The position numbers and the translations under genes are program-made. This document shows, piece after piece, positions 1,860-14,451 of a stretch of DNA of 25,940 nt; the first letter of the stretch is position 1, and every line of letters begins with the position of its first letter. Source of the DNA: a virus; IMG/VR virus record IMGVR_UViG_3300009079_000111, positions 1 through 25,940 of that record; one strand, written 5' to 3'. A model generated the notes under the pieces. That model did not search any database. It was not told the DNA's origin and saw nothing but the letters and a program-made list of their open reading frames with translations.

Positions 1860-4800
1860 TTACTCCTGCAAAGCCGGTTGGCCGATATTGTCCCACTTGC
1901 GCAGGGTATCGCCAGTGCGCTTCGTGTATTTAGTGATCTGGTGCGAACTAGTGCGTTGCTCAGTGCGCAACTCGCGCAGTTCCTCACGCAAGGCCCTAAG
2001 CTCCCTCACCATTCCAGCGTTGCCGCCGCCCTTGGTCATATCGGTCACATGCTCTTGAGGGTGCAGCATAGACAGGAACCCGCCCTGCCCGTCCAAGCCC
2101 CCGGAGCGCGGACCGGAGCCGGTAAAACCGCCGCCAGCGAATGACGGAACAGCACCAACACCTTCTATGTTGCTGGACCAATTATCTATCCAGCCGATAG
2201 TTGACAGGATGGCCGAACTAATCTCGCCAATCTGCGATTGCAGTCCGCCCGCGCCGTAGAATTGGCTGACAAACTCTGCGTCCCCGGCCCCTTGCGTCCG
2301 ACCATCTGCAATGTACTGGATGGTGCCGTTCGCGAGTTGAGTTAGGGTTGCGGCGGCACCATTTGGACCGTTCGTCAGGGTTGTTCCTGTTGATGCCTCA
2401 AGCGCCCTGATTTCCGCAATAATGTCTGCGGCTGTTGACTGTTGATTGGCGAGCCTGTTTGCGGCGGTTGTGCCGTGGGCCTGCCAGTTGGCGATTTGTG
2501 TCGCAGTTTGTGCCGCCTGCTCAGACGCCACCATTTCGGCAGCGATTTGCCGCGTCAGGTTGCGGATTAACCCTCCTAGACTGGTAAGTTCGTCGCCCAA
2601 CTCATCCATGCCAAGGTCGAGCGTTCCAATCTCGCCGCTGAACCAACTTGAAAGGGTTGCGCTTGGGTCAAATTCAAACCCACCGCCAATTTCAATGAAG
2701 TTGGTTCTAGCCGCATCTAACAGGTGCAATAGCCGTGTACCGGGACGCCCACCTTGGATTTCCGCGAGCATGGTCAATGTCGCGTCGAACCCGCCGCCAG
2801 TTAGCAGTCTGGACAGGTACTCCCCTTTAACGTCGCCCAAGGAGGCGCTCATTGTAACAGTTCCGGTCAGACCTTCGTTGGCGATAACATCGGCCAGCCA
2901 ATCCACGCCTGACACACCGGCAACCGGCGAGATAATTCCGTCCACGCCAAACGCGCCGCCGTTCAGTATGGTAGATACCCAATCGGTTGCTGCTTCCAGT
3001 CCTTCAGGCGTTATAACCCCGTCTGAATTAAATGCGTCACCGCTCAGTATGGTAGCAACCCAATCCACCGAGGATGCAACGCCCAATGGCGAGATAATCC
3101 CGTCTGCCGTAAGGTCGCCACCGCCGAGGATAATTGCCAGCCAAGCCGGTACATCCATCGTTCCATCAGCGTTTGGGCTGATCAGAATATCCGTAGGGTC
3201 GATGCCGACCCCGTTCAATACATCCTCAATCCCCGGCGGCACACTGTCGCCTAGAATTGTGCTGACATTAACCGATGAGGCCAGCGTTGCCCCGGAGAGG
3301 GCAATCAGATCGTCAATTGAAATATCGCCAGAGTTGAATGCGTCGATGCCAAGATCAAGCCCGGTGATCATGTTGTTGGCTTCTGCCGCCAACAAGAACC
3401 TCAGGCCGGGGTCCATATCCTCATCGCGGAAAATCAGATCAACAAGACCCTCAAGCGACGTGCCGGAGGCGTCCAATAGGTCTTTAACATAATCAGGGAC
3501 GTTGGCGTCATTGACATTGATCATCAGGTCGGCCAGCGCGGCCTGAATTGTGTCATAACTCATCGCCGCAACGTCTGTCAGGATGCCCTCAAGTTCGACT
3601 ATATCGCCGTACAGCAGCCCAATCTCGTTAAGGATGCTCTCGTAATCTTTGGGGTCGGCTGTCAACAGGCTTTGGAACAGGTCGCGCATATCCTCAAAGA
3701 TGCTGATTTGCGCGTGATAAATGTCGGCCATGTACTGATCTTTTGCGCCCTCAAATTCAGAGATGCCCGCGAGCAATTGCGCGTCCCGCTCGACCTGAAT
3801 AGCCGCGCGTCTGTAATCGGTTGCGCTGGATGCCGTGTCGAACACTGCGCCCAGATACTGGTTAGCCGCCCCGACATAATCATTTGCCGCGCCCTGATCC
3901 CCGCCCCTCGCCGCTGAATAAATATCGCTATACCGCATGGCGGTTGCTTCGAGAATTTCCGCACGACTGCGACCGCCAAGGTCGGTGGTCCGCAATGTCA
4001 CGAGGAAGTCGCGCAATTTATCAGCCGTTTGCAGCCAAAGCCGGGATGATTGCTCAAGCGTTTGGGCCAGCGATTTACGCTGTGCAATCTGCTCGTTCAC
4101 CATGTTGACGCCCTCAGCGACGAACTCCGAAACCTCCGGCGATACGCCCCCAAGGATTGACCCCATAGCACTGGCCAGCGACATTAACTGTGCGTAGAGA
4201 GTGGCCCCCGCGCTGGTGGTCGTGTCAATGCTTTCGACCAGTGCCCTGAATTGGCCCTGCGTAGTCGGCATGGCAAATCCCAATTCGGTAATCTCGTTCC
4301 TCAGATATTCGGTTGTCAGCGCCGTTTGTTCGGCTTCGGTGTAGAACGCTTGGAAGTAGGCTTGCGTTGCGCTCGCCATGTTCGACGCGCCGCCGAATGC
4401 GTCCACAAGCGTAGAGGCCATATCAGCCCCCGCTAGGGACGCTTCAAACATTTGATGACCCAAGAGGCGTGCGCTGTCGTTTGCCGCGTCCAGTGACGTT
4501 GCCAGCCGCGTCAGCGTGTCCATAGCACCTTCGCCCGCGCGGGTGTATTCCTCAGTGCCTAGAACCAGTTCAGCCATTGCGTTCGATACGGTCGCAATCT
4601 CGCTGTTCAGCCCTTCCATGATCTCGGCTTCGGACAAGTTGTGAACCCAGAGCGTGAATTCGTCGCCCACGAAGTTGCGGATTTCCCTAACCGACAGGCC
4701 CAAGCTGCGTCCCATGTCGCGGATACTGTCGGTCACAGCGTCCATTGCCGTGTCAAGTATCGCTGTCACTTGGCCGTCAACGTCGCTGTAATCAGCCCTA

Positions 4801-7800
4801 TCGCCGCGCAGGAACCCGCCGCGATAGAAATCAAACTGCGTCCCGTCAAAGCCATCTGACCCCATTGTGCCGCGAATGGCGGTGCCCGCGTATGTCTGCG
4901 ACAGCCCCTTCACCAAGATGCCGATGCCAACCGCCAATGGTCCCAGAGCGCCAACAAGCCCGCCGATTGCCGACAGGCTACCGGTCATGGCCGAGCCAAA
5001 CTGCGCCCCGAGGGTGCCAATGTAGCCACCGATGCCGCCGCTCATAAGCGAGCTTACGCCAAGGCCCAATCCACTACTCAAGCCGCCGATCAGGCCGTTG
5101 GCCCCGATGGTATTGCCCAACAAGCCGCCAAGGATACCGTTGCCGGTTCCGTTGCCCGTCTGCGCCGCAACCGCGCCCCCGGCCAACGCCGCAGCCCCGC
5201 CACCGGCTATCGTGCCGCCAAGTGCCAGCAAAATTCGGTTGCTTGCCGCTGTCGCGACCATTTCTGAAATCATGCGCTTGAACGAATTCAGAACCGCGTC
5301 CTTGAACCCCTCAAAGTCAGTGAAACCAGAGGCCACAAAGTCACCCCATGCAGACGTGATACTGTCAACGCTGGTCGCCATTTCCTTGCCAAGAATGTCA
5401 GACAGATCAACCGCCTCTTCCTTGGCTTCCTTGATCGCCTTACCCGCCCCGCTTGTGCTCTTGGCAAGTTTGGCCGCTCCGCTTGCGCTTGCCACCAATT
5501 CCCTGCCGAGCTTTTTCAGCGAGTTGATTGCCGGTGTCGCTGTTTTGACAAAAATCCCCGTCACCCTACTGGCAGTGCTGAATGCCTGTCCGACGCGAGT
5601 ACCGGCCCCGATCATGCCGCCACCTACGCGCGACAACGCACCGGCTAGGTTGTCAGCGTCAACAATTAGGCTCCTTAGCGAGTTTCCCGCGCTTGACAGG
5701 GCGGAAAGAAGCTCACCGAGCGGGTCTGAGGTCTCAATCGCCCCATAAAAGGTGAGGATGTTCTGCGCCAGAACGCCAGCCGCGCTTGCCGCGTTTCCAG
5801 CCCCGACACTGAGGTCAGACATGCCGCCGCCAGACCTCAGAATAGTGGCCTCAGCGGTTGTCAGGAACGTCACCATACGGCTCAGAATGTCAGCCTGTTC
5901 CTTGTATCCGGTCGCGGCTTCAAAGTCCCTGATCATCAGGGCGAATTCACGCTGAGCCTCTATGCCAAGGGACAGCTTGCTGACCATCGCATCAATCGAA
6001 GTGACTTGTTCGTCAATGCTTGCCGAGAAATTGGCCTCAGCTAAGACGTTCATGGCCTTGCCAAGATCATACGCCTTTACCGCCGCAAATCCGTATTGCT
6101 CTACCAGCTTGGCAAAGTCCAGATCGACAAGGGCAATTGACGAACGTGTCGCCTCCTTGATTTCATCTGACAGCCCCCCAAGATCATCTGTCGCGAGGGG
6201 AATTCTTCCGCTTAGCTCCAACTCAATAGCCGCGCCAAGTTGGGCTATGTCGCTGGTGAGGTCCGCCAGAGCTTGGTGCTGTTCTGGCGTGCCGTATTCG
6301 ACATTTTCAATCGCCTGTTGCAACTTGCTTTGCTCGTGCAGCAAGTCGGCCAAAACCTGCTTTTGCTTTTCGACAGCCGACGCACGACTTTTTGCGTCCG
6401 AGATACCGGGCAGATCAACGCCCATTTCTTGCGCTCGCAGGGCAACCGTTTCCAACTCCAGAAGCTGGTCCCTTGCATACACAATGTCCTCGTACAGTTG
6501 CTGACCACCAAGAGCGGCTTGAGCTTCGGCCCGTTGGCGGTCCAGAATTCGCGACAACTGTTGTTTCTCAAACTCCATTGACGCCTTGGTCACGGCCAAT
6601 TTCTCACGCGCGGCGTTTGTCAGTTCGATCATTGCGGTTTTGGTCAGTGCTATCTTTTGGCCCTGAGCCTCAAGGGCGGAGGTTGCGCCCTCTGCCGCCG
6701 CTCCAAACTCTTCCTGAGCATCCCGCAAGCCAAAGAATACAAGGATGCCGTCCGCTGCATCGCTGAGCGCCGTGATAAGCTTGGCGGTAAGCCGCAGCAC
6801 TTCGGTCATGGCCTTAACGACCCCACGCAGCACCGCCGTCAGACCAGCGTCGCCAAGGGCCGTGATCACCCCCATCAGCGCTGACTGCAAGCTGTCAAGA
6901 TCACCGCCCAAGTTGTCCCGCATCGTGTCAGCGGTTTCCTTGGTGGCCCCGTCCACGTTCCCAAGCTCATCTGTAAGATCGCCAAGCCGGTCAGTTGCCG
7001 CGACCATTGCCAGCGCCGCCGGTCCGCCTTCCATGCCAAAGATACGCATAGCTTGCGCCGCGCTCATCCCCTTTTCGTGGAACAGGTCCATAATGTCCGT
7101 CAAATCGACGGTGGCCGGGTTCACTTGGGCGAGGCTGATGCCCATTTCCTTGAGGGCGTTGGAAGCATCTTTCGTTGGGGTGACAAGGCGCGAAAGAATG
7201 TTGCGCAAGCTGGTGCCAGCCATGCCGCCCTGAATACCCGCGTCTGACAGGACGCCCACCGCCGCCGCTGCCTCCGACATGGATATGCCAAGGCTGGACG
7301 CGACCGGGCCGACAAACTTCATTGCCTGACCAAGCTGAGATACGTTCGTGTTTGCGCGGGTTGATGCCGCTGTCAAAATGTCCGTTGCCTTGGATGCCTC
7401 TTTGGCGCTCAGGCTGAACCCCGACATGATGTTTGACGCCGTGTCAGCCGCTTCTGCTAGGCCCATTGACGCCGCCGTCGCAAGATCGACCACCGCCGGG
7501 ATTGTGGCCATCGCGTCACGCGCAGAAAACCCGGCCATAGCGAGGAAGGTCATTCCGTCAGCGGCTTGCTTGGTGCTGAATTCAGTTTCAACGCCCAGCC
7601 GCTTGGCGACCTTGCGCATTGCGTCCATTTCACCGCCGGTCGCCCTAGAGACGGCGGAAAGCTTTGACATGGATCGTTCTAGTTCAGACAGGACGGAAAT
7701 AGAGCTTGCCAGACCTTGGAGCGCACCAGCAACAGCGGCGACAATTAGGCCAACACCCTTGAAGCTCTTGCTGGCCGCTGCACCGGCGGCGACGCTCTTG

Positions 7801-7934
7801 TTGCCAAGATCACCGACGCTTTTCTCTGCGCCCTTAGCCGCGTCAGACACGCCCTTTAGGGAAGTCTTGCCCTTGTCAGCGCCACTCGTGTCAATTCGAA
7901 TTCCGAGTGTTGCAACGTCACCACCAAAGGCCAT
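1860..7934 (-). CDS. Tail tape measure protein (TP901-type core)
   Basis: A 2024-residue protein, by far the longest in the window. Residues about 85-360 match the TP901-type tape-measure core (ELERSMSKLSAVSRATGGEM, then TEFSTKQAADG, GISMSEAAAAVGVL and GGMAGTSLRNILSRL). A central coiled-coil-rich part follows, then a Gly/Ala-rich hydrophobic stretch at about 890-1015 of the kind thought to interact with the host membrane. Four 27-residue repeats lie at about 1577-1684. The C-terminus carries FAGGGFTGSGPRSGG (about 1928) and a short charged coiled coil (about 1981-2000). It sets tail length and is threaded through the tube during assembly. The ATG overlaps the stop of the chaperone frame (TGATG) and AAAGGA lies upstream. 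At the usual 0.15 nm per residue it would fit a tail near 300 nm (inference). Confidence 0.95.
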   Translation of the reverse strand: MAFGGDVATLGIRIDTSGADKGKTSLKGVSDAAKGAEKSVGDLGNKSVAAGAAASKSFKGVGLIVAAVAGALQGLASSISVLSELERSMSKLSAVSRATGGEMDAMRKVAKRLGVETEFSTKQAADGMTFLAMAGFSARDAMATIPAVVDLATAASMGLAEAADTASNIMSGFSLSAKEASKATDILTAASTRANTNVSQLGQAMKFVGPVASSLGISMSEAAAAVGVLSDAGIQGGMAGTSLRNILSRLVTPTKDASNALKEMGISLAQVNPATVDLTDIMDLFHEKGMSAAQAMRIFGMEGGPAALAMVAATDRLGDLTDELGNVDGATKETADTMRDNLGGDLDSLQSALMGVITALGDAGLTAVLRGVVKAMTEVLRLTAKLITALSDAADGILVFFGLRDAQEEFGAAAEGATSALEAQGQKIALTKTAMIELTNAAREKLAVTKASMEFEKQQLSRILDRQRAEAQAALGGQQLYEDIVYARDQLLELETVALRAQEMGVDLPGISDAKSRASAVEKQKQVLADLLHEQSKLQQAIENVEYGTPEQHQALADLTSDIAQLGAAIELELSGRIPLATDDLGGLSDEIKEATRSSIALVDLDFAKLVEQYGFAAVKAYDLGKAMNVLAEANFSASIDEQVTSIDAMVSKLSLGIEAQREFALMIRDFEAATGYKEQADILSRMVTFLTTAEATILRSGGGMSDLSVGAGNAASAAGVLAQNILTFYGAIETSDPLGELLSALSSAGNSLRSLIVDADNLAGALSRVGGGMIGAGTRVGQAFSTASRVTGIFVKTATPAINSLKKLGRELVASASGAAKLAKSTSGAGKAIKEAKEEAVDLSDILGKEMATSVDSITSAWGDFVASGFTDFEGFKDAVLNSFKRMISEMVATAASNRILLALGGTIAGGGAAALAGGAVAAQTGNGTGNGILGGLLGNTIGANGLIGGLSSGLGLGVSSLMSGGIGGYIGTLGAQFGSAMTGSLSAIGGLVGALGPLAVGIGILVKGLSQTYAGTAIRGTMGSDGFDGTQFDFYRGGFLRGDRADYSDVDGQVTAILDTAMDAVTDSIRDMGRSLGLSVREIRNFVGDEFTLWVHNLSEAEIMEGLNSEIATVSNAMAELVLGTEEYTRAGEGAMDTLTRLATSLDAANDSARLLGHQMFEASLAGADMASTLVDAFGGASNMASATQAYFQAFYTEAEQTALTTEYLRNEITELGFAMPTTQGQFRALVESIDTTTSAGATLYAQLMSLASAMGSILGGVSPEVSEFVAEGVNMVNEQIAQRKSLAQTLEQSSRLWLQTADKLRDFLVTLRTTDLGGRSRAEILEATAMRYSDIYSAARGGDQGAANDYVGAANQYLGAVFDTASSATDYRRAAIQVERDAQLLAGISEFEGAKDQYMADIYHAQISIFEDMRDLFQSLLTADPKDYESILNEIGLLYGDIVELEGILTDVAAMSYDTIQAALADLMINVNDANVPDYVKDLLDASGTSLEGLVDLIFRDEDMDPGLRFLLAAEANNMITGLDLGIDAFNSGDISIDDLIALSGATLASSVNVSTILGDSVPPGIEDVLNGVGIDPTDILISPNADGTMDVPAWLAIILGGGDLTADGIISPLGVASSVDWVATILSGDAFNSDGVITPEGLEAATDWVSTILNGGAFGVDGIISPVAGVSGVDWLADVIANEGLTGTVTMSASLGDVKGEYLSRLLTGGGFDATLTMLAEIQGGRPGTRLLHLLDAARTNFIEIGGGFEFDPSATLSSWFSGEIGTLDLGMDELGDELTSLGGLIRNLTRQIAAEMVASEQAAQTATQIANWQAHGTTAANRLANQQSTAADIIAEIRALEASTGTTLTNGPNGAAATLTQLANGTIQYIADGRTQGAGDAEFVSQFYGAGGLQSQIGEISSAILSTIGWIDNWSSNIEGVGAVPSFAGGGFTGSGPRSGGLDGQGGFLSMLHPQEHVTDMTKGGGNAGMVRELRALREELRELRTEQRTSSHQITKYTKRTGDTLRKWDNIGQPALQE
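2883..3206. repeat. Four 81-bp repeats inside the tape-measure gene
   Basis: Equivalent positions recur at 2883, 2964, 3045 and 3126, exactly 81 bp (27 codons) apart. The middle copies share runs such as CAGTATGGTA and CCCAATC; the outer copies have diverged. Each unit encodes a pattern of W-x-(8)-G-G-x-(4)-DG-I-(S/T)-P, for example DWVATILSGDAFNSDGVITP. The acidic and Asn/Asp-Gly positions look like a calcium-binding loop of EF-hand or dockerin type, though the match is incomplete. The leftmost copy, which is last in the protein, has lost the DG pair. Confidence 0.8.
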
Positions 7935-8290
7935 CAGGCATTCCTTTCAATCGGCATGATGGAGAAAATGTTTTTCCCCTCATTCATCCCCCTGACGAAA
8001 GAGGCGCTCATGTCCCTAAGGGCACGCGCTTCCCAAGTCTCAATGTCCCTCTGTGCAAGGCCACAATAGGCTGACAACTCTTGCCAGTCTAGGGGCGTGG
8101 CATTCCCCATTTGATCATAGCGCACCGCGCCGCAATCCATCAGTATTTCCATGAGATAATAGCCGCCCTCAATAGGCGGCATTGGTAGCTCTTTTCCCGC
8201 GCGGACAAACTGTTCCGCCCTTGTCAGTTCGTGGGGTTCGGTCTTTCCCTTGCCCACTTCAATCTCAGGCCGCGCTTGCAGCCAGCCCAT
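7934..8290 (-). CDS. Downstream tail-assembly chaperone frame (GT-like, made by -1 frameshift)
   Basis: The ATG-initiated part is 118 residues, but the same frame is open further upstream without a stop to at least 8341, inside the preceding gene. Translation of that extension gives LQGRVTRLILAACQ directly before MGWLQARPEIEVGKG, which reads as continuous protein. There is no ribosome-binding sequence before the ATG at 8290. It lies between the tail-tube gene and the tape measure, the place of the lambda G/GT pair. I therefore read it as the T domain, translated mainly as a fusion of about 270 residues (138 from the first frame, 132 from this one). The T domain is known in lambda to bridge the tape measure and tube protein during assembly and is absent from the finished virion. 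Confidence 0.8.
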   Translation of the reverse strand: MGWLQARPEIEVGKGKTEPHELTRAEQFVRAGKELPMPPIEGGYYLMEILMDCGAVRYDQMGNATPLDWQELSAYCGLAQRDIETWEARALRDMSASFVRGMNEGKNIFSIMPIERNA

Positions 8291-8316
8291 TTGGCAAGCT
8301 GCAAGTATCAGGCGGG

Positions 8317-8745
8317 TTACGCGGCCTTGAAGAAATTTCCCTTTTCCTTCGCAAAGTCGATCACCTGACGGACAAGATCATCCGACTGATCAAAGAACGC
8401 TTCCTTGTTGGCCTGCGTGGCCTCAAGGGGTTTTCCGCCAGATTGCAGGTTGATAAACTTGACGACAATGGAGCAGACCAGAACAAGCCCAAGCGCCTCG
8501 TCATCCCGATCACCACCGGCCATTGCGCCCTTGCGCGACTTCTTGAGACGCCCCTGCACGGTGGCGCTTTCGATGCCCCGGCACATCACGCCGACCTCTT
8601 TTGGGGTCTTGGTCTTGTCGATCCAAGCGCCTTCCTCGTCGGTGCCCTCGCCAGAGTAAAGCAGATGCCCCAAGACAGGGTGGCGGAGTTGAAGAAAGGC
8701 ACCGGTTTCGGCGTCGGTTTTGGTGTCAAGCTTTCGAAAGTCCAT
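8317..8745 (-). CDS. Tail-assembly chaperone (G-like)
   Basis: A 142-residue protein, MDFRKLDTKTDAETGAFLQL at the start and KEKGNFFKAA at the end. The N-terminal half has beta-type sequence with a variable substrate-like loop (HLLYSGEGTDEEGAWIDK), and the C-terminal half is helical and charged. I recognise it mainly by position, directly after the tail-tube gene and before the tape measure, and by the frameshift site near its 3' end that joins it to the next frame. In lambda-type tails this protein coats the tape measure so that the tube can polymerise around it. An AGGA sequence lies about nine bases before the ATG. It is separated from the tube gene by a terminator, so it is probably made at a lower level. 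Confidence 0.75.
   Translation of the reverse strand: MDFRKLDTKTDAETGAFLQLRHPVLGHLLYSGEGTDEEGAWIDKTKTPKEVGVMCRGIESATVQGRLKKSRKGAMAGGDRDDEALGLVLVCSIVVKFINLQSGGKPLEATQANKEAFFDQSDDLVRQVIDFAKEKGNFFKAA
8332..8341 (-). promoter_or_regulatory. Programmed -1 ribosomal frameshift site GGGAAATTTC
   Basis: On the coding strand the upstream chaperone frame reads AAG GGA AAT TTC, so the decamer GGGAAATTTC holds two overlapping heptamers of X XXY YYZ form: G GGA AAT and A AAT TTC. The first differs from the well-known lambda GGGAAAG site only at its last base. The site lies five to six codons before the stop of the first frame, and the -1 frame is open from here to 7934. A -1 slip is the direction needed to enter it. 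Confidence 0.8.
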
Positions 8746-10209: not shown

Positions 10210-10447
10210 CATCTTTCCAAGCGTCTTTCGCAGGATCATATAGCGACATTATGTCGCGTGTCAGCCCCATTGCCAAGCTTGTTCCTCTAATGTCGGGCCA
10301 AGCCTCTCTTTTGACGTGTGCCCCAAGTGACGCAGCCGGGGCCACAAAGCGCTGAACCCTCGTGTGCCAAACGCGCACAAGCTCGCCCCGATGGTCCTCG
10401 CCAACCTTGACCAGAATGCGGCGTCCCTTCTTTCCGATAACCTTCAT
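10184..10447 (-). CDS. Small protein of unknown function downstream of the MuF gene
   Basis: An 87-residue basic protein, MKVIGKKGRRILVKVGEDHR at the start and DPAKDAWKDDGNEGILR at the end. I do not recognise it. Its ATG overlaps the stop of the 1335-residue MuF gene (ATGA at 10447..10444), and its 3' end overlaps the start of the gp10-like gene by 26 bases. The N-terminal part looks like a small beta unit and the rest is mixed. There is no signal peptide or membrane segment. It could be a neck protein; because it is coupled to a MuF protein with a possible effector extension, it could also be a cognate immunity or chaperone partner. That second idea rests on gene order only. Confidence 0.6.
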   Translation of the reverse strand: MKVIGKKGRRILVKVGEDHRGELVRVWHTRVQRFVAPAASLGAHVKREAWPDIRGTSLAMGLTRDIMSLYDPAKDAWKDDGNEGILR

Positions 10448-13400
10448 GTTTCCATGCCCCCGCCATCATATTCCCTAAGCTTCCACGTTGTCGGCTCCCA
10501 AACCAACGTGGAATAATCATCGGTTCCCAATCTATGCTCGACCCAGACGTACCGATCTGCCGTTGGCAGGTACTCGTATGCGCTGCCGCTGCCCGCCCCT
10601 TTGACAATTTCGCGATGGAATTCAGCCGGGGAAAGCGTTGATGGAATGGGGGTCTCCCTGCCGGTAACATCAGGCACCCCGCGAGGGTCAGCGGTTTTCC
10701 AGATATGCGGCTCCAATGTCTCAGACATAATCACCAGCCGCCCGTCCTTCCAGACCGCTCGCTCTGTCTTGTCATCGTCCGCCTTGATCCAAATCTTGCC
10801 GCCGATCTTGCCAATCTCGCCAAGAGAGAATTCGAACCCGCTCTTTTTGGCCTCAGCCTTGGCCTCTTCGTAGGTTGACGGATACGCGCTGACCACCCTG
10901 CCAAAATCAGAATAGGTGCTTTCGATCATCGCATTTCTGATCTCGCCCTTTGACTTGGCGTCATCCTTCCCTCCGATACTGCCTGACTTGTAAATTGTCA
11001 TCTCGGCGGTGATGGGATTGATGATATAGGTCCACGTTTTTTCGCCGCTTGGAATTAAGCCGCTCCCCTCGCTTGTCCAACTGCGAACAAACACGTTGGG
11101 GTCTGCCGTTGGGAAAAATTCCCCGCGCTCGACAAAGCCTGACACAATGCTCCTGACCTGCTTGTGATCCATCCGCATTTGTTTGATTTGATCACCTGTC
11201 GTGTCTGGAACCCCGATAGAAATGCTCTCAGGATACAGGTCATCAAGAATACGAGGTGCCTCGGAAACGACAAATCGCCCGGCGTCATCAAACTTGCCGA
11301 TCCTGATTACATGCTCATCAGCATAGCCCCAAGTGTCCCCGTCATAGGCGCTCAAGCCAAGCTTTTTGGCGTACTCTGTAACATCTTCCTCAGACATACG
11401 AGCAACGCTTGTGACCTCACCGGGAAAGCCGATGACCGGGCTGACAATCGGGTCAATGTCAGTGTCGAGATATGACCCCCTACCCCACGTCAGCCGATCC
11501 AGTCTCCCGCCGGTCCAGACCTCAATCCGACCTTCCTCGCGGGAGTAGAAATATACGCCGTGGCTTTTGCTGTCAGCGCCGCGCTTGACGAACGTGTACC
11601 GGTCACTTGTTGGCACCATGTCTCTGACCATCGCCATAAAGTCACCATAGCTCTGGTGCTCAATCGTGTCGGTCATGTCGCCCGGCCCGGCGGTGCCCTT
11701 CAATCCGCCGATAGAAAACGCCCTGTGATCTGGCATGGGTCGATCATATGCCGTCATCGTCCCGGTCGCCATGTCAAACTCTACGGTTCTGATTACCTCA
11801 ATCCTAGCGCCGGTCTCCGTTCTCACCCTTAGACCCACATCGGTCCACACGTCGCCGTCACGGTACACATTCCCAGAGGTTATCGCGTTCGCAGCCTCAT
11901 AAATATCTCCCCCTGACAATCCAGTAACACGCGCTGTCACAGGCCCCAGATCAGACCGCAGGGAAGAGGCCCGCATAACATCAGCCAAGTCGCCAGAGCG
12001 CGGCAGCTTGAACACCTCAAGCGTCCTTGACCCCGCGTCCCAAGTCATCGTCACGTCCGACCTGTCAAGGGCGTCATACCCGGTCCAGATGCCCGGCGTG
12101 TCCGTTGCCTCAAGGGAATACCGCGAGCTTTCGACAAACCGTTCAACATCCTCAAGGTCAGCATCCATGCGGCTGTCAAGCGCACCAAGGCCATCACCGG
12201 CCCATGCAAACAGGTCGCCGCCCACCGGAAAATCAGAACCCGCCGCGTCGTTCGCGTCGTATTCTTTCAGTTCAAACTTTTTCCGCCAGTTGTCATTGCC
12301 GCCCTCTTCCCAAGGCGCTCTGAAATCTGGGTATCCATCAATTCGAATTTCTGGCCTTGCGCCGGTTGCCTCTAGGACCGAAAACAGGTCAGGCAACAGG
12401 GCGTCACCATCGTTATCAAGGTGATAATCCGACATTTCAGAAATGATGATCTGACTAATGTCGCCGCTGTCAACTTCACCGAAAATCTGCGCCTCAACAT
12501 AGCCCACCTCGTCAATACCGTTTGGCGGCGAAAGAGCATCGCCATTTGATAGGGGGATAAGAAATTCACGGCTTGCCGTATTCGCACCTGATGAGCCTGT
12601 CGGCTTGAACGGAACAGACCACGCGCGGGGGTCATTCATTGGTGACGGTGCCAATGGTAGATACTCAGGTTTACCCCAACTTGACACAGCCACTGGCCCC
12701 TTTGGACCGTTGCCCACGCGACGCAGAGAGGCCATAGCCATGCTGGTATCATCAAGCGTGTCACCAAAGACAAACGTGGTTCTCGCCCTGACCTCAGGCT
12801 TGAGCTTGATTGTAATGTCGCCATACCCAGCAAGGCGTGAGGCAAATTCCTCTTCACGATTATCCATGACAAAGCCGTAAACCGGACGTTCCTCATGGTG
12901 TGCGCCCTGATCAATGTCCCAGAGCGCAGCCTCCGCAAAGTCCCTCGTGTCATGGCTCAGGTAGCCGCCTGACGTGTTCGTATAAAACTGGTTCCTGAAC
13001 CTGTCATTGAGGATCGAATTTAGGTCATTACCGCTGACCTGAATTGCCGGGACCGCGTGCTCAAGATACTGAGCCAAGCCATCCTCAACATTGTCAGGCG
13101 TCATACCGTCTGGCCAGAATGAGATTGTCTCATCCTTGAGGTAATCCTCCCAAGCGCCGTCCGACCACTCAGCCGTTCGCAATTCATAGGGGGGAACCGG
13201 CTGATCCAGACCCCACGACAAATAATCGTCCTTTTGTGTCGCGCCAAAATCAATGTCCGTGATAACGAAGCAACGGCAGTTTATTGCGTCAGCCGCCGTC
13301 GCCCCCATAGACCTGTCCATCGGAAACATCATTTTCCCGCGAATGCCTGATGTAAAATAGGCCCTGTCAGTTACCCCAATCGCAACTTGGCCGTCCATGC

Positions 13401-14451
13401 TTGCGTGATGGTCCCGCGTTGCCTTATCGGCGGTCGCGTCCCAAGTTCTCTTGACTTGGTGATCCTCAACTTCACCGCGCTCGACCATCTGTCGCAAGCT
13501 CTCAAATTCAGCATGGTTCATGCTGCCGATAAGCTCAGTTCGCGCGATATTCTCAGCCCGATACCGTAGCGTCCGGTTGCGGTACTTCGTCACCATCTTG
13601 TCGGCTTGCGCTGACGTGATCTTGCGGCGTCCCGGCATGGCGGCAAGGCGGCGCTCACGTCCAGCCAATATCACCCGCATGGCACGCTCACCGGCGGCGT
13701 CATCCCGGCGCTGGGCTTCAGCTATCCGCTCGCCAAGAACAACCCGGTCCTTGATCATCGCTTTTTCGTGGCGAAGGTATAGGACGCGGTTTTCTACGGC
13801 GGTGTCAAATCTAGGGTCTCTCAGTTCCCTTGACAGGTAGCTATTCAAGCCAGAAATGGTGTCGCTGTTCAGTTCGGTTCTGACATTGTTGGCCCATTGG
13901 TTTTGGGCCGGGGTCAGCCCGATCATGCCGCCCTCTCGCATCCCCGTGCGCCGGTTGATACGGCCCACCAGATCAAGCGCCGTTGTTCTCGGGCTTCGAC
14001 CCTCTGTCATGCTCTGCGTCAGAGCCATCCGCACGTTGTCGCGGGTCTCGTTTTCGATTGAAGTGATGAGCGTTGATGATCTTTCCGCCAAATACTGTTC
14101 AGCTCGTGGATTTCTGGCGTCAAACGACACAACCGCAGCCGGTGCCATGTCTGGAACCCTGTCAGGCAATTGTGGGTTGGCGGCATATTCGGCAAACGCC
14201 TGAGCCGCGTTTTCTGTCACTTGCTGACCGGCCTGACCATAGGCCAGCTCAACAACGTCTTGGACCTCCCAGAAATAGTCTGGCAGATACCCGAGCCGAC
14301 CCAAAACGCCGGTCATTGATCCGGTTCTGACAGCATCCATAAGTGCAGTGAATTGCGCAGCGCTGCCAAACGAGTAAATGCTCTCGACAAAGCGCTCCTG
14401 AAACTCAGGCTCAAGAGCCTCAAGGATACTGGAAAAACCATCGTTGATCAT
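10444..14451 (-). CDS. Giant MuF-type minor head protein with DUF3626-like segment and C-terminal repeats
   Basis: A 1335-residue protein. Residues about 1-295 are mostly helical, as in other minor head proteins. Residues about 295-400 carry the Mu gpF / SPP1 gp7 domain: ENIARTELIGSMNHAEFESL, KRTWDATADKATRDHHASMD and the terminal NCRCFV cysteine motif. Ordinary family members end near here. This one continues for some 930 residues. Segment 450-705 (FRNQFYTNTSGG at 485-496, ERPVYGF at 521, LKPEVRARTTFVFGDT at 550-565, YVEAQIFGEVDSG at 651-663) resembles DUF3626 as I remember that family. From about 765 to the end are alternating diverged repeats. The MuF part is injected or capsid-internal in related phages, so the extension may be cargo that enters the host. 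Start by ATGA overlap with the upstream gene (14451..14448). Confidence 0.85.
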   Translation of the reverse strand: MINDGFSSILEALEPEFQERFVESIYSFGSAAQFTALMDAVRTGSMTGVLGRLGYLPDYFWEVQDVVELAYGQAGQQVTENAAQAFAEYAANPQLPDRVPDMAPAAVVSFDARNPRAEQYLAERSSTLITSIENETRDNVRMALTQSMTEGRSPRTTALDLVGRINRRTGMREGGMIGLTPAQNQWANNVRTELNSDTISGLNSYLSRELRDPRFDTAVENRVLYLRHEKAMIKDRVVLGERIAEAQRRDDAAGERAMRVILAGRERRLAAMPGRRKITSAQADKMVTKYRNRTLRYRAENIARTELIGSMNHAEFESLRQMVERGEVEDHQVKRTWDATADKATRDHHASMDGQVAIGVTDRAYFTSGIRGKMMFPMDRSMGATAADAINCRCFVITDIDFGATQKDDYLSWGLDQPVPPYELRTAEWSDGAWEDYLKDETISFWPDGMTPDNVEDGLAQYLEHAVPAIQVSGNDLNSILNDRFRNQFYTNTSGGYLSHDTRDFAEAALWDIDQGAHHEERPVYGFVMDNREEEFASRLAGYGDITIKLKPEVRARTTFVFGDTLDDTSMAMASLRRVGNGPKGPVAVSSWGKPEYLPLAPSPMNDPRAWSVPFKPTGSSGANTASREFLIPLSNGDALSPPNGIDEVGYVEAQIFGEVDSGDISQIIISEMSDYHLDNDGDALLPDLFSVLEATGARPEIRIDGYPDFRAPWEEGGNDNWRKKFELKEYDANDAAGSDFPVGGDLFAWAGDGLGALDSRMDADLEDVERFVESSRYSLEATDTPGIWTGYDALDRSDVTMTWDAGSRTLEVFKLPRSGDLADVMRASSLRSDLGPVTARVTGLSGGDIYEAANAITSGNVYRDGDVWTDVGLRVRTETGARIEVIRTVEFDMATGTMTAYDRPMPDHRAFSIGGLKGTAGPGDMTDTIEHQSYGDFMAMVRDMVPTSDRYTFVKRGADSKSHGVYFYSREEGRIEVWTGGRLDRLTWGRGSYLDTDIDPIVSPVIGFPGEVTSVARMSEEDVTEYAKKLGLSAYDGDTWGYADEHVIRIGKFDDAGRFVVSEAPRILDDLYPESISIGVPDTTGDQIKQMRMDHKQVRSIVSGFVERGEFFPTADPNVFVRSWTSEGSGLIPSGEKTWTYIINPITAEMTIYKSGSIGGKDDAKSKGEIRNAMIESTYSDFGRVVSAYPSTYEEAKAEAKKSGFEFSLGEIGKIGGKIWIKADDDKTERAVWKDGRLVIMSETLEPHIWKTADPRGVPDVTGRETPIPSTLSPAEFHREIVKGAGSGSAYEYLPTADRYVWVEHRLGTDDYSTLVWEPTTWKLREYDGGGMET

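What the first reader, a model, noticed from the sequence alone, without database searches (positions are those of the whole stretch)
8332..8341. Double slippery sequence joining the two tail chaperone frames
GGGAAATTTC contains G GGA AAT and A AAT TTC in frame with the first gene. The -1 frame is open from before this site to the tape-measure start and encodes LQGRVTRLILAACQ directly ahead of the annotated downstream ATG, which has no ribosome-binding site. This is the G/GT arrangement of lambda with two overlapping heptamers, which may allow two fusion products differing by one residue or raise the slip rate.
Basis: partly seen in the sequence, partly recalled or inferred. Interest (0 to 1): 0.6.

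Follow-up and report, generated by a model that had tools for sequence, protein, structure and literature searches.

The report
Tail-chaperone frameshift with overlapping slip sites
Where two overlapping phage tail-assembly genes meet, the ribosome is set up to slip back one base and make a fused protein, a standard trick of long-tailed phages; the doubled slip signal is real, but both copies give the same protein and such doublings are no more common among relatives than chance allows.

Summary
GGGAAATTTC (minus strand, 8341-8332) carries G_GGA_AAT and A_AAT_TTC, both in frame with gene G (8745-8317), a tail assembly chaperone gene between the tail tube and tape measure genes. The -1 frame runs open to the tape measure start; its ATG (8290) has no ribosome-binding site and is not conserved.

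In 36 of 36 related G/T pairs T lies in the -1 frame of G, and 33 hold an in-frame slippery heptamer (5.3 expected by synonymous chance). This is lambda-type G/GT frameshifting, giving a 270-residue fusion.

Two corrections. Both heptamers give the identical protein (Phe138 read as TTT or TTC), so there are not two products and mass spectrometry cannot tell the sites apart. The doubling is not enriched: given one heptamer, 2 tandems seen, 1.9 expected.

Two additions. A very stable predicted stem-loop (-36 kcal/mol, z -4.2) starts 5 nt after A_AAT_TTC and holds the ATG in its loop. Among relatives the slip site sits at four codon positions of a junction that aligns without gaps, and double-site loci join neighbouring positions, as if the site moves by synonymous changes without altering the product.

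Ordinary as a system, mildly interesting as slip-site turnover. No experiment was possible.

The parts
8317..8745 (-). gene G: tail assembly chaperone, 142 aa, zero frame, own SD (gaggaa)
   Evidence: phrog_313 E 4.9e-6; 14 of 22 aligned relatives match phrog_313; SD
8335..8341 (-). upstream heptamer G_GGA_AAT, in frame with G
   Evidence: no relative has a heptamer at this codon position
8332..8338 (-). downstream heptamer A_AAT_TTC, in frame with G; probable main slip site
   Evidence: same position as AAATTTT in CGphi29, Effie, MD-2021a and L080
7934..8332 (-). T part reached by the -1 slip (132 aa plus stop); -1 frame open from 8377
   Evidence: Phage_TAC_18 and phrog_18915; homology from the slip site onward
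8317..8319 (-). TAA stop of G, 12 nt after the decamer
8288..8290 (-). ATG in the T frame; no SD, in the apical loop of the predicted stem; aligns with Ile or Leu codons in relatives
8320..8326 (-). 5' arm GGCCGCG of the predicted outer stem, 5 nt after A_AAT_TTC, 8 nt after G_GGA_AAT
8268..8274 (-). 3' arm CGCGGCC of the outer stem
8275..8305 (-). inner hairpin CTTGCAGCT...GGCTGCAAG stacked on the outer stem
1860..7934 (-). tape measure protein, 2024 aa
   Evidence: phrog_1533 E 6e-78; PF10145
8851..9285 (-). tail tube (major tail) protein, 144 aa
   Evidence: phrog_158 E 1.6e-16; PF16460 above cut-off

Best explanation
A programmed -1 ribosomal frameshift signal of the lambda G/GT kind. Most ribosomes finish G and release a 142-residue chaperone. 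A minority, delayed by a stem-loop that starts 5 nt past the slip site, slip back one base with Asn- and Phe-tRNA on A_AAT_TTC (perhaps sometimes with Gly- and Asn-tRNA on G_GGA_AAT) and go on through T, giving one 270-residue G-T protein that is the same whichever heptamer is used. By analogy with lambda the G part binds the tape measure protein and the T part recruits the tail tube subunit. Shown here: frames, heptamers, stop and start context, identity of products, conservation in relatives. Predicted only: the stem, which heptamer dominates, the slip rate. Inferred from lambda: the role in tail assembly.
For: Site and frames. Gene order tail tube - G - T - tape measure and family matches. 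All 36 distinct G/T pairs have T in -1; 33 have an in-frame heptamer against 5.3 expected. T homology runs upstream of the ATG to the slip site; fusions align without gaps across the junction. 21 of 36 have no ATG/GTG/TTG in the T frame from the slip to 60 nt past the G stop. A fusion-length chaperone family, phrog_8233, matches the L080 fusion across its junction. Stem: -36.1 kcal/mol, z -4.15, 5 nt spacer. A-site UUY and cognate re-pairing are favourable in E. coli (PMC4066793).
Against: No expression data. The window's own T match to Phage_TAC_18 (23.5 bits) is below the curated cut-off of 27. Three of 36 relatives lack a canonical heptamer (L034, L035, L078). The host and its tRNAs are unknown, so E. 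coli rules may not carry over. The stem's shape is not conserved across subgroups.
Confidence: 0.93

Rival explanations
1. T is translated on its own from the ATG at 8290, for example by re-initiation 26 nt after the G stop, and the heptamers are incidental.
For: An ATG exists there and gives a 118-residue frame; SD-less starts occur in many bacteria (general knowledge).
Against: No SD, and the ATG lies in the loop of a very stable predicted stem. The codon is Ile or Leu in relatives; homology continues upstream of it; 21 of 36 pairs have no start codon in the region; heptamers are conserved.
Confidence: 0.04
2. Both heptamers are used, and the doubling was selected to raise the slip rate.
For: Both are in frame and 5 or 8 nt from the stem, each within the 4-10 nt range used in PMC4066793. 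Other loci also have two sites (L080, L074, L077).
Against: Given one heptamer, tandems are as frequent as synonymous chance predicts (2 against 1.9; multi-site loci 4 against 2.4, P 0.21). Given GGA AAT TTC the upstream heptamer needs only AAG before it, the codon for 71% of Lys here. AAU is a poor A-site shifter in E. coli.
Confidence: 0.25
3. The frame change is a sequencing error or is bridged by transcriptional slippage instead of ribosomal slipping.
For: Both can mimic a -1 shift.
Against: No homopolymer longer than four bases lies at the site. A second contig is identical over 10.4 kb. The same frame relation recurs in 36 pairs with different slip motifs.
Confidence: 0.02

Closest known systems
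Phage lambda G/GT tail assembly chaperone frameshift (G_GGA_AAG), widespread in long-tailed phages (review PMC5009743)
   Same: Gene order, -1 overlap at the end of G, slippery heptamer, fused G-T product, T without its own start signals.
   Different: Slip site is a decamer with two overlapping heptamers, neither of them lambda's GGGAAAG; strong predicted stem-loop after the site; different chaperone sequence families.
G/T pairs of relatives: Paracoccus phage Pkon1 (GGGAAAG), Salicola phage CGphi29 and Acinetobacter phages Effie and MD-2021a (AAATTTT), Thioclava and Sulfitobacter plasmid-borne elements (GGGAAAC)
   Same: Homologous G and T, -1 relation, in-frame heptamer at or within three codons of the same junction position.
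   Different: Single heptamers; annotated as separate hypothetical proteins.
IV contig L080 (IMGVR_UViG_3300037780_000051), nearest relative of the fusion (38% identity)
   Same: Also has two overlapping in-frame heptamers (AAATTTTTTC) that give one product.
   Different: The pair is shifted one codon downstream (AAATTTT plus TTTTTTC); no unusually stable stem after it.
IS3-family -1 frameshift cassettes studied in E. coli (PMC4066793)
   Same: Heptamer followed 4-10 nt later by a hairpin closed by G-C pairs.
   Different: Unrelated genes; the stem here is only predicted.

Membership tests
Lambda-type G/GT tail assembly chaperone frameshift | Two small genes between the tail tube and tape measure genes | tested here: met
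   tail tube 9285-8851, G, T, tape measure 7934-1860
Lambda-type G/GT tail assembly chaperone frameshift | Second gene in the -1 frame, overlapping the end of the first | tested here: met
   61-nt open overlap in -1; 36 of 36 relatives
Lambda-type G/GT tail assembly chaperone frameshift | In-frame slippery heptamer in the overlap, conserved among relatives | tested here: met
   33 of 36 against 5.3 expected
Lambda-type G/GT tail assembly chaperone frameshift | Second gene lacks its own initiation signals | tested here: met
   no SD, ATG not conserved
Lambda-type G/GT tail assembly chaperone frameshift | Proteins belong to tail assembly chaperone families | tested here: met
   G phrog_313; T Phage_TAC_18 sub-threshold in the window, 13 of 22 relatives match, best 5.6e-20
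Lambda-type G/GT tail assembly chaperone frameshift | Low, fixed ratio of fusion to G | not testable with these tools
   needs a reporter or protein measurement
Lambda-type G/GT tail assembly chaperone frameshift | G part binds tape measure protein, T part binds tail tube protein; neither is in the virion | not testable with these tools
   needs biochemistry
   identical 270-aa translations
Stem-loop-stimulated -1 frameshift | Stable hairpin starting 4-10 nt after the heptamer | tested here: met
   5 nt (8 nt for the upstream heptamer), -36.1 kcal/mol, z -4.15; prediction only, effect not tested

The most novel reading that the evidence does not exclude
Overlapping or neighbouring heptamers are transit states by which the slip site moves along the G/T junction. 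A -1 slip anywhere in the shared stretch gives a fusion of the same length, so the site can move by synonymous changes while function is kept. The peptide Ser-Asn-Phe-Leu-Gly-Asn occurs with TTTTTTG alone (L162), TTTTTTG plus GGGAAAC (L074) and GGGAAAC alone (L007); the window (columns 17+18) groups with L080 (18+19) and L060/L063/L065 (19).
Probability: 0.4. Interest if true: 0.4.

Novelty: new member of a known kind. Interest (0 to 1): 0.25.

Why it matters
It indicates that T in this phage and its relatives is made only as a G-T fusion; in the annotated relatives the two genes are listed as separate hypothetical proteins. It corrects the proposed test: mass spectrometry can show the fusion (tryptic GNFLQGR, residues 136-142, against GNFFK from unshifted G) but cannot say which heptamer slips. 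The relatives form a small natural series for asking how a recoding signal changes position and type (GGGAAAN, AAATTTN, TTTTTTN) while its product keeps its length.

Tried and rejected
A scan for the decamer plus flank (GGGAAATTTYTWYAARGC) gave 21 contigs, of which only the twin contig of this virus holds a G/T pair. Rfam and tRNA scans found nothing. Two further in-frame heptamers inside T (GGGAAAG 8249, GGGAAAA 8198) lead to stops after 24 and 7 residues and were taken as chance. A stem conserved across the whole family was considered and dropped: stems after the site are frequent but differ between subgroups. AAAGGGA just upstream makes a third overlapping heptamer of the X_XXG_GGZ type; I did not count it because such motifs are generally weaker, and a role is not excluded. 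A literature search for tandem or overlapping slippery sites in phages found nothing relevant in the open library.

Full report
WHAT IS THERE. The decamer GGGAAATTTC is on the minus strand at 8341-8332. The gene that contains it, G (8745-8317, 142 aa), reads ...GAA AAG GGA AAT TTC TTC AAG GCC GCG TAA, so G_GGA_AAT and A_AAT_TTC are both in the slippery phase. The -1 frame is open from 8377 to the TGA at 7936-7934, which overlaps the tape measure ATG. Upstream is a lambda-like tail tube protein (9285-8851); downstream is a 2024-residue tape measure protein. G matches phrog_313, 'Tail assembly chaperone'. T matches phrog_18915 and, below the cut-off, Pfam Phage_TAC_18; 13 of 22 aligned T proteins match Phage_TAC_18, the best at 5.6e-20.

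IS IT MORE THAN CHANCE. In the window's genes 9 in-frame heptamers of the A/T type occur in 7,959 codons, and only here do two overlap. On its own this is weak: re-drawing synonymous codons over the overlap gives a heptamer in 24% and a tandem in 3.6% of trials. Relatives decide it. Loci with a related tape measure protein, plus annotated phage and plasmid hits, were collected, G and T were found in them by iterated profiles, and 36 pairs with distinct junction DNA were kept (the window counts as one of them). All 36 have T in the -1 frame of G. In 33 the overlap holds an in-frame heptamer, against 5.3 expected under synonymous re-drawing. The motifs are GGGAAAC/G, AAATTTT/G/C and TTTTTTC/G/T. 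Many loci are related to each other, so the 36 are not fully independent.

T HAS NO START OF ITS OWN. The ATG at 8290 has no SD-like sequence, unlike G (gaggaa), the tape measure gene (aaagga) and the tail tube gene (aggaga). The aligned residue is Ile in L007 and Pkon1 and Leu in CGphi29. In 21 of 36 pairs no ATG, GTG or TTG lies in the T frame between the slip site and 60 nt past the G stop. Homology of T extends upstream of the ATG to the slip site, and simulated fusions align without gaps across the junction in nearly all rows. The fusion-length family phrog_8233, 'tail assembly chaperone', matches the L080 fusion in one piece across its junction.

ONE PRODUCT, NOT TWO. Slipping on G_GGA_AAT reads GGA AAT, then TTT CTT CAA; slipping on A_AAT_TTC reads GGA AAT TTC, then CTT CAA. 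TTT and TTC both code for Phe, so both give ...KGNFLQGRVTRL... and the same 270-residue protein. In any tandem of this build the length cannot differ and at most one residue can. L080 and L077 likewise give one product; L074 gives two that differ by Lys/Asn.

WHICH HEPTAMER. A_AAT_TTC sits where AAATTTT sits in CGphi29, Effie, MD-2021a and L080, while no relative has a heptamer at the GGGAAAT position. In E. [quoted passage not shown]). This favours UUC over AAU. Given GGA AAT TTC, the upstream heptamer needs only a preceding AAG, the codon used for 71% of Lys here. Across relatives tandems are not enriched: 2 seen, 1.9 expected; multi-site loci 4 seen, 2.4 expected, P 0.21. So the upstream heptamer may be incidental. 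A contribution to the rate is not excluded.

The 72 nt after the decamer fold at -36.1 kcal/mol, z -4.15. A 7-bp stem GGCCGCG/CGCGGCC starts 5 nt after A_AAT_TTC and 8 nt after G_GGA_AAT, with a second hairpin stacked on it and the ATG in its loop; 0.3% of 72-nt windows of this strand are as stable. It fits the stimulator rules used in PMC4066793. In 28 loci the best hairpin 4-10 nt after the site is more stable than in control stretches nearby (mean -27.8 against -21.7 kcal/mol, Wilcoxon p 0.0002, rows not independent). The shape differs between subgroups, so it is a predicted stimulator, not a conserved RNA element.

MOVING SITE. On the junction alignment the A-site codon of the slip falls at column 17 (window only), 18 (AAATTTN), 19 (TTTTTTN) or 21 (GGGAAAC/G). 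Double-site loci occupy neighbouring positions: window 17+18, L080 18+19, L074 19+21; L077 has the same TTTTTTGGGAAA arrangement but aligns poorly. In the tree of fusions the window groups with L080 and the column-19 loci L060/L063/L065 (SH-aLRT 89, fork drawn open), and L007 (21) is sister to L074 (19+21) at 99; the primary position changes at least seven times. L162, L074 and L007 share Ser-Asn-Phe-Leu-Gly-Asn yet use 19, 19+21 and 21. This suggests, without proving, that the site moves by synonymous change through double-site states. Several deep branches are long and weakly supported.

COMPARISON. In function and anatomy this is the lambda G/GT system, described as widespread in long-tailed phages (PMC5009743). 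Gene order, -1 overlap, conserved heptamer, missing start signals and chaperone-family membership were tested and met; product ratio and protein contacts could not be tested. The nearest relatives infect or reside in Paracoccus, Thioclava and Sulfitobacter, so a host among the Alphaproteobacteria is likely (inference).

VERDICT. A new member of a known kind.

Noticed in passing
window 10444-14451 (-): A 1335-residue protein with a Mu F-like head morphogenesis domain (285-397) and a weak DUF3626 match (484-568); the rest, about 770 residues, matches nothing in Pfam.
   Followed up: no
L074:3674-3802 (and L094:3819-3947): Directly after an intact T there is a second, out-of-frame copy of the T C-terminus from another lineage (SMTDIEPWEANLLRKMSEAFVSGMNEGTSPFSIPPADRK), which looks like a scar of recombination at the T/tape measure boundary.
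   Followed up: partly
L008:2246-2578: T is split by an in-frame stop and lacks an internal stretch relative to its close relative L007: a decaying copy or an assembly error.
   Followed up: partly
L034:2459-2486, L035:510-528, L078:3077-3110: Three relatives keep the -1 G/T overlap but have no canonical heptamer; they carry GCTTTTAC or GCGCTTTTTACG at about the same place, so a weaker or different slip motif may serve.
   Followed up: partly
L032 (NZ_CP136687.1, 46,389 bp circular Sulfitobacter plasmid): The record annotated as a plasmid carries tail terminator and G/T genes of this family and is probably a phage-plasmid.
   Followed up: no
L003 (Paracoccus phage Pkon1) 3588-6340; L033 (Thioclava) 3499-5229: Between T and the expected tape measure gene lie unexpected genes: short ORFs and Arc/KilA-N-type regulators in Pkon1, a 577-residue 'calcium-binding protein' in Thioclava.
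   Followed up: no
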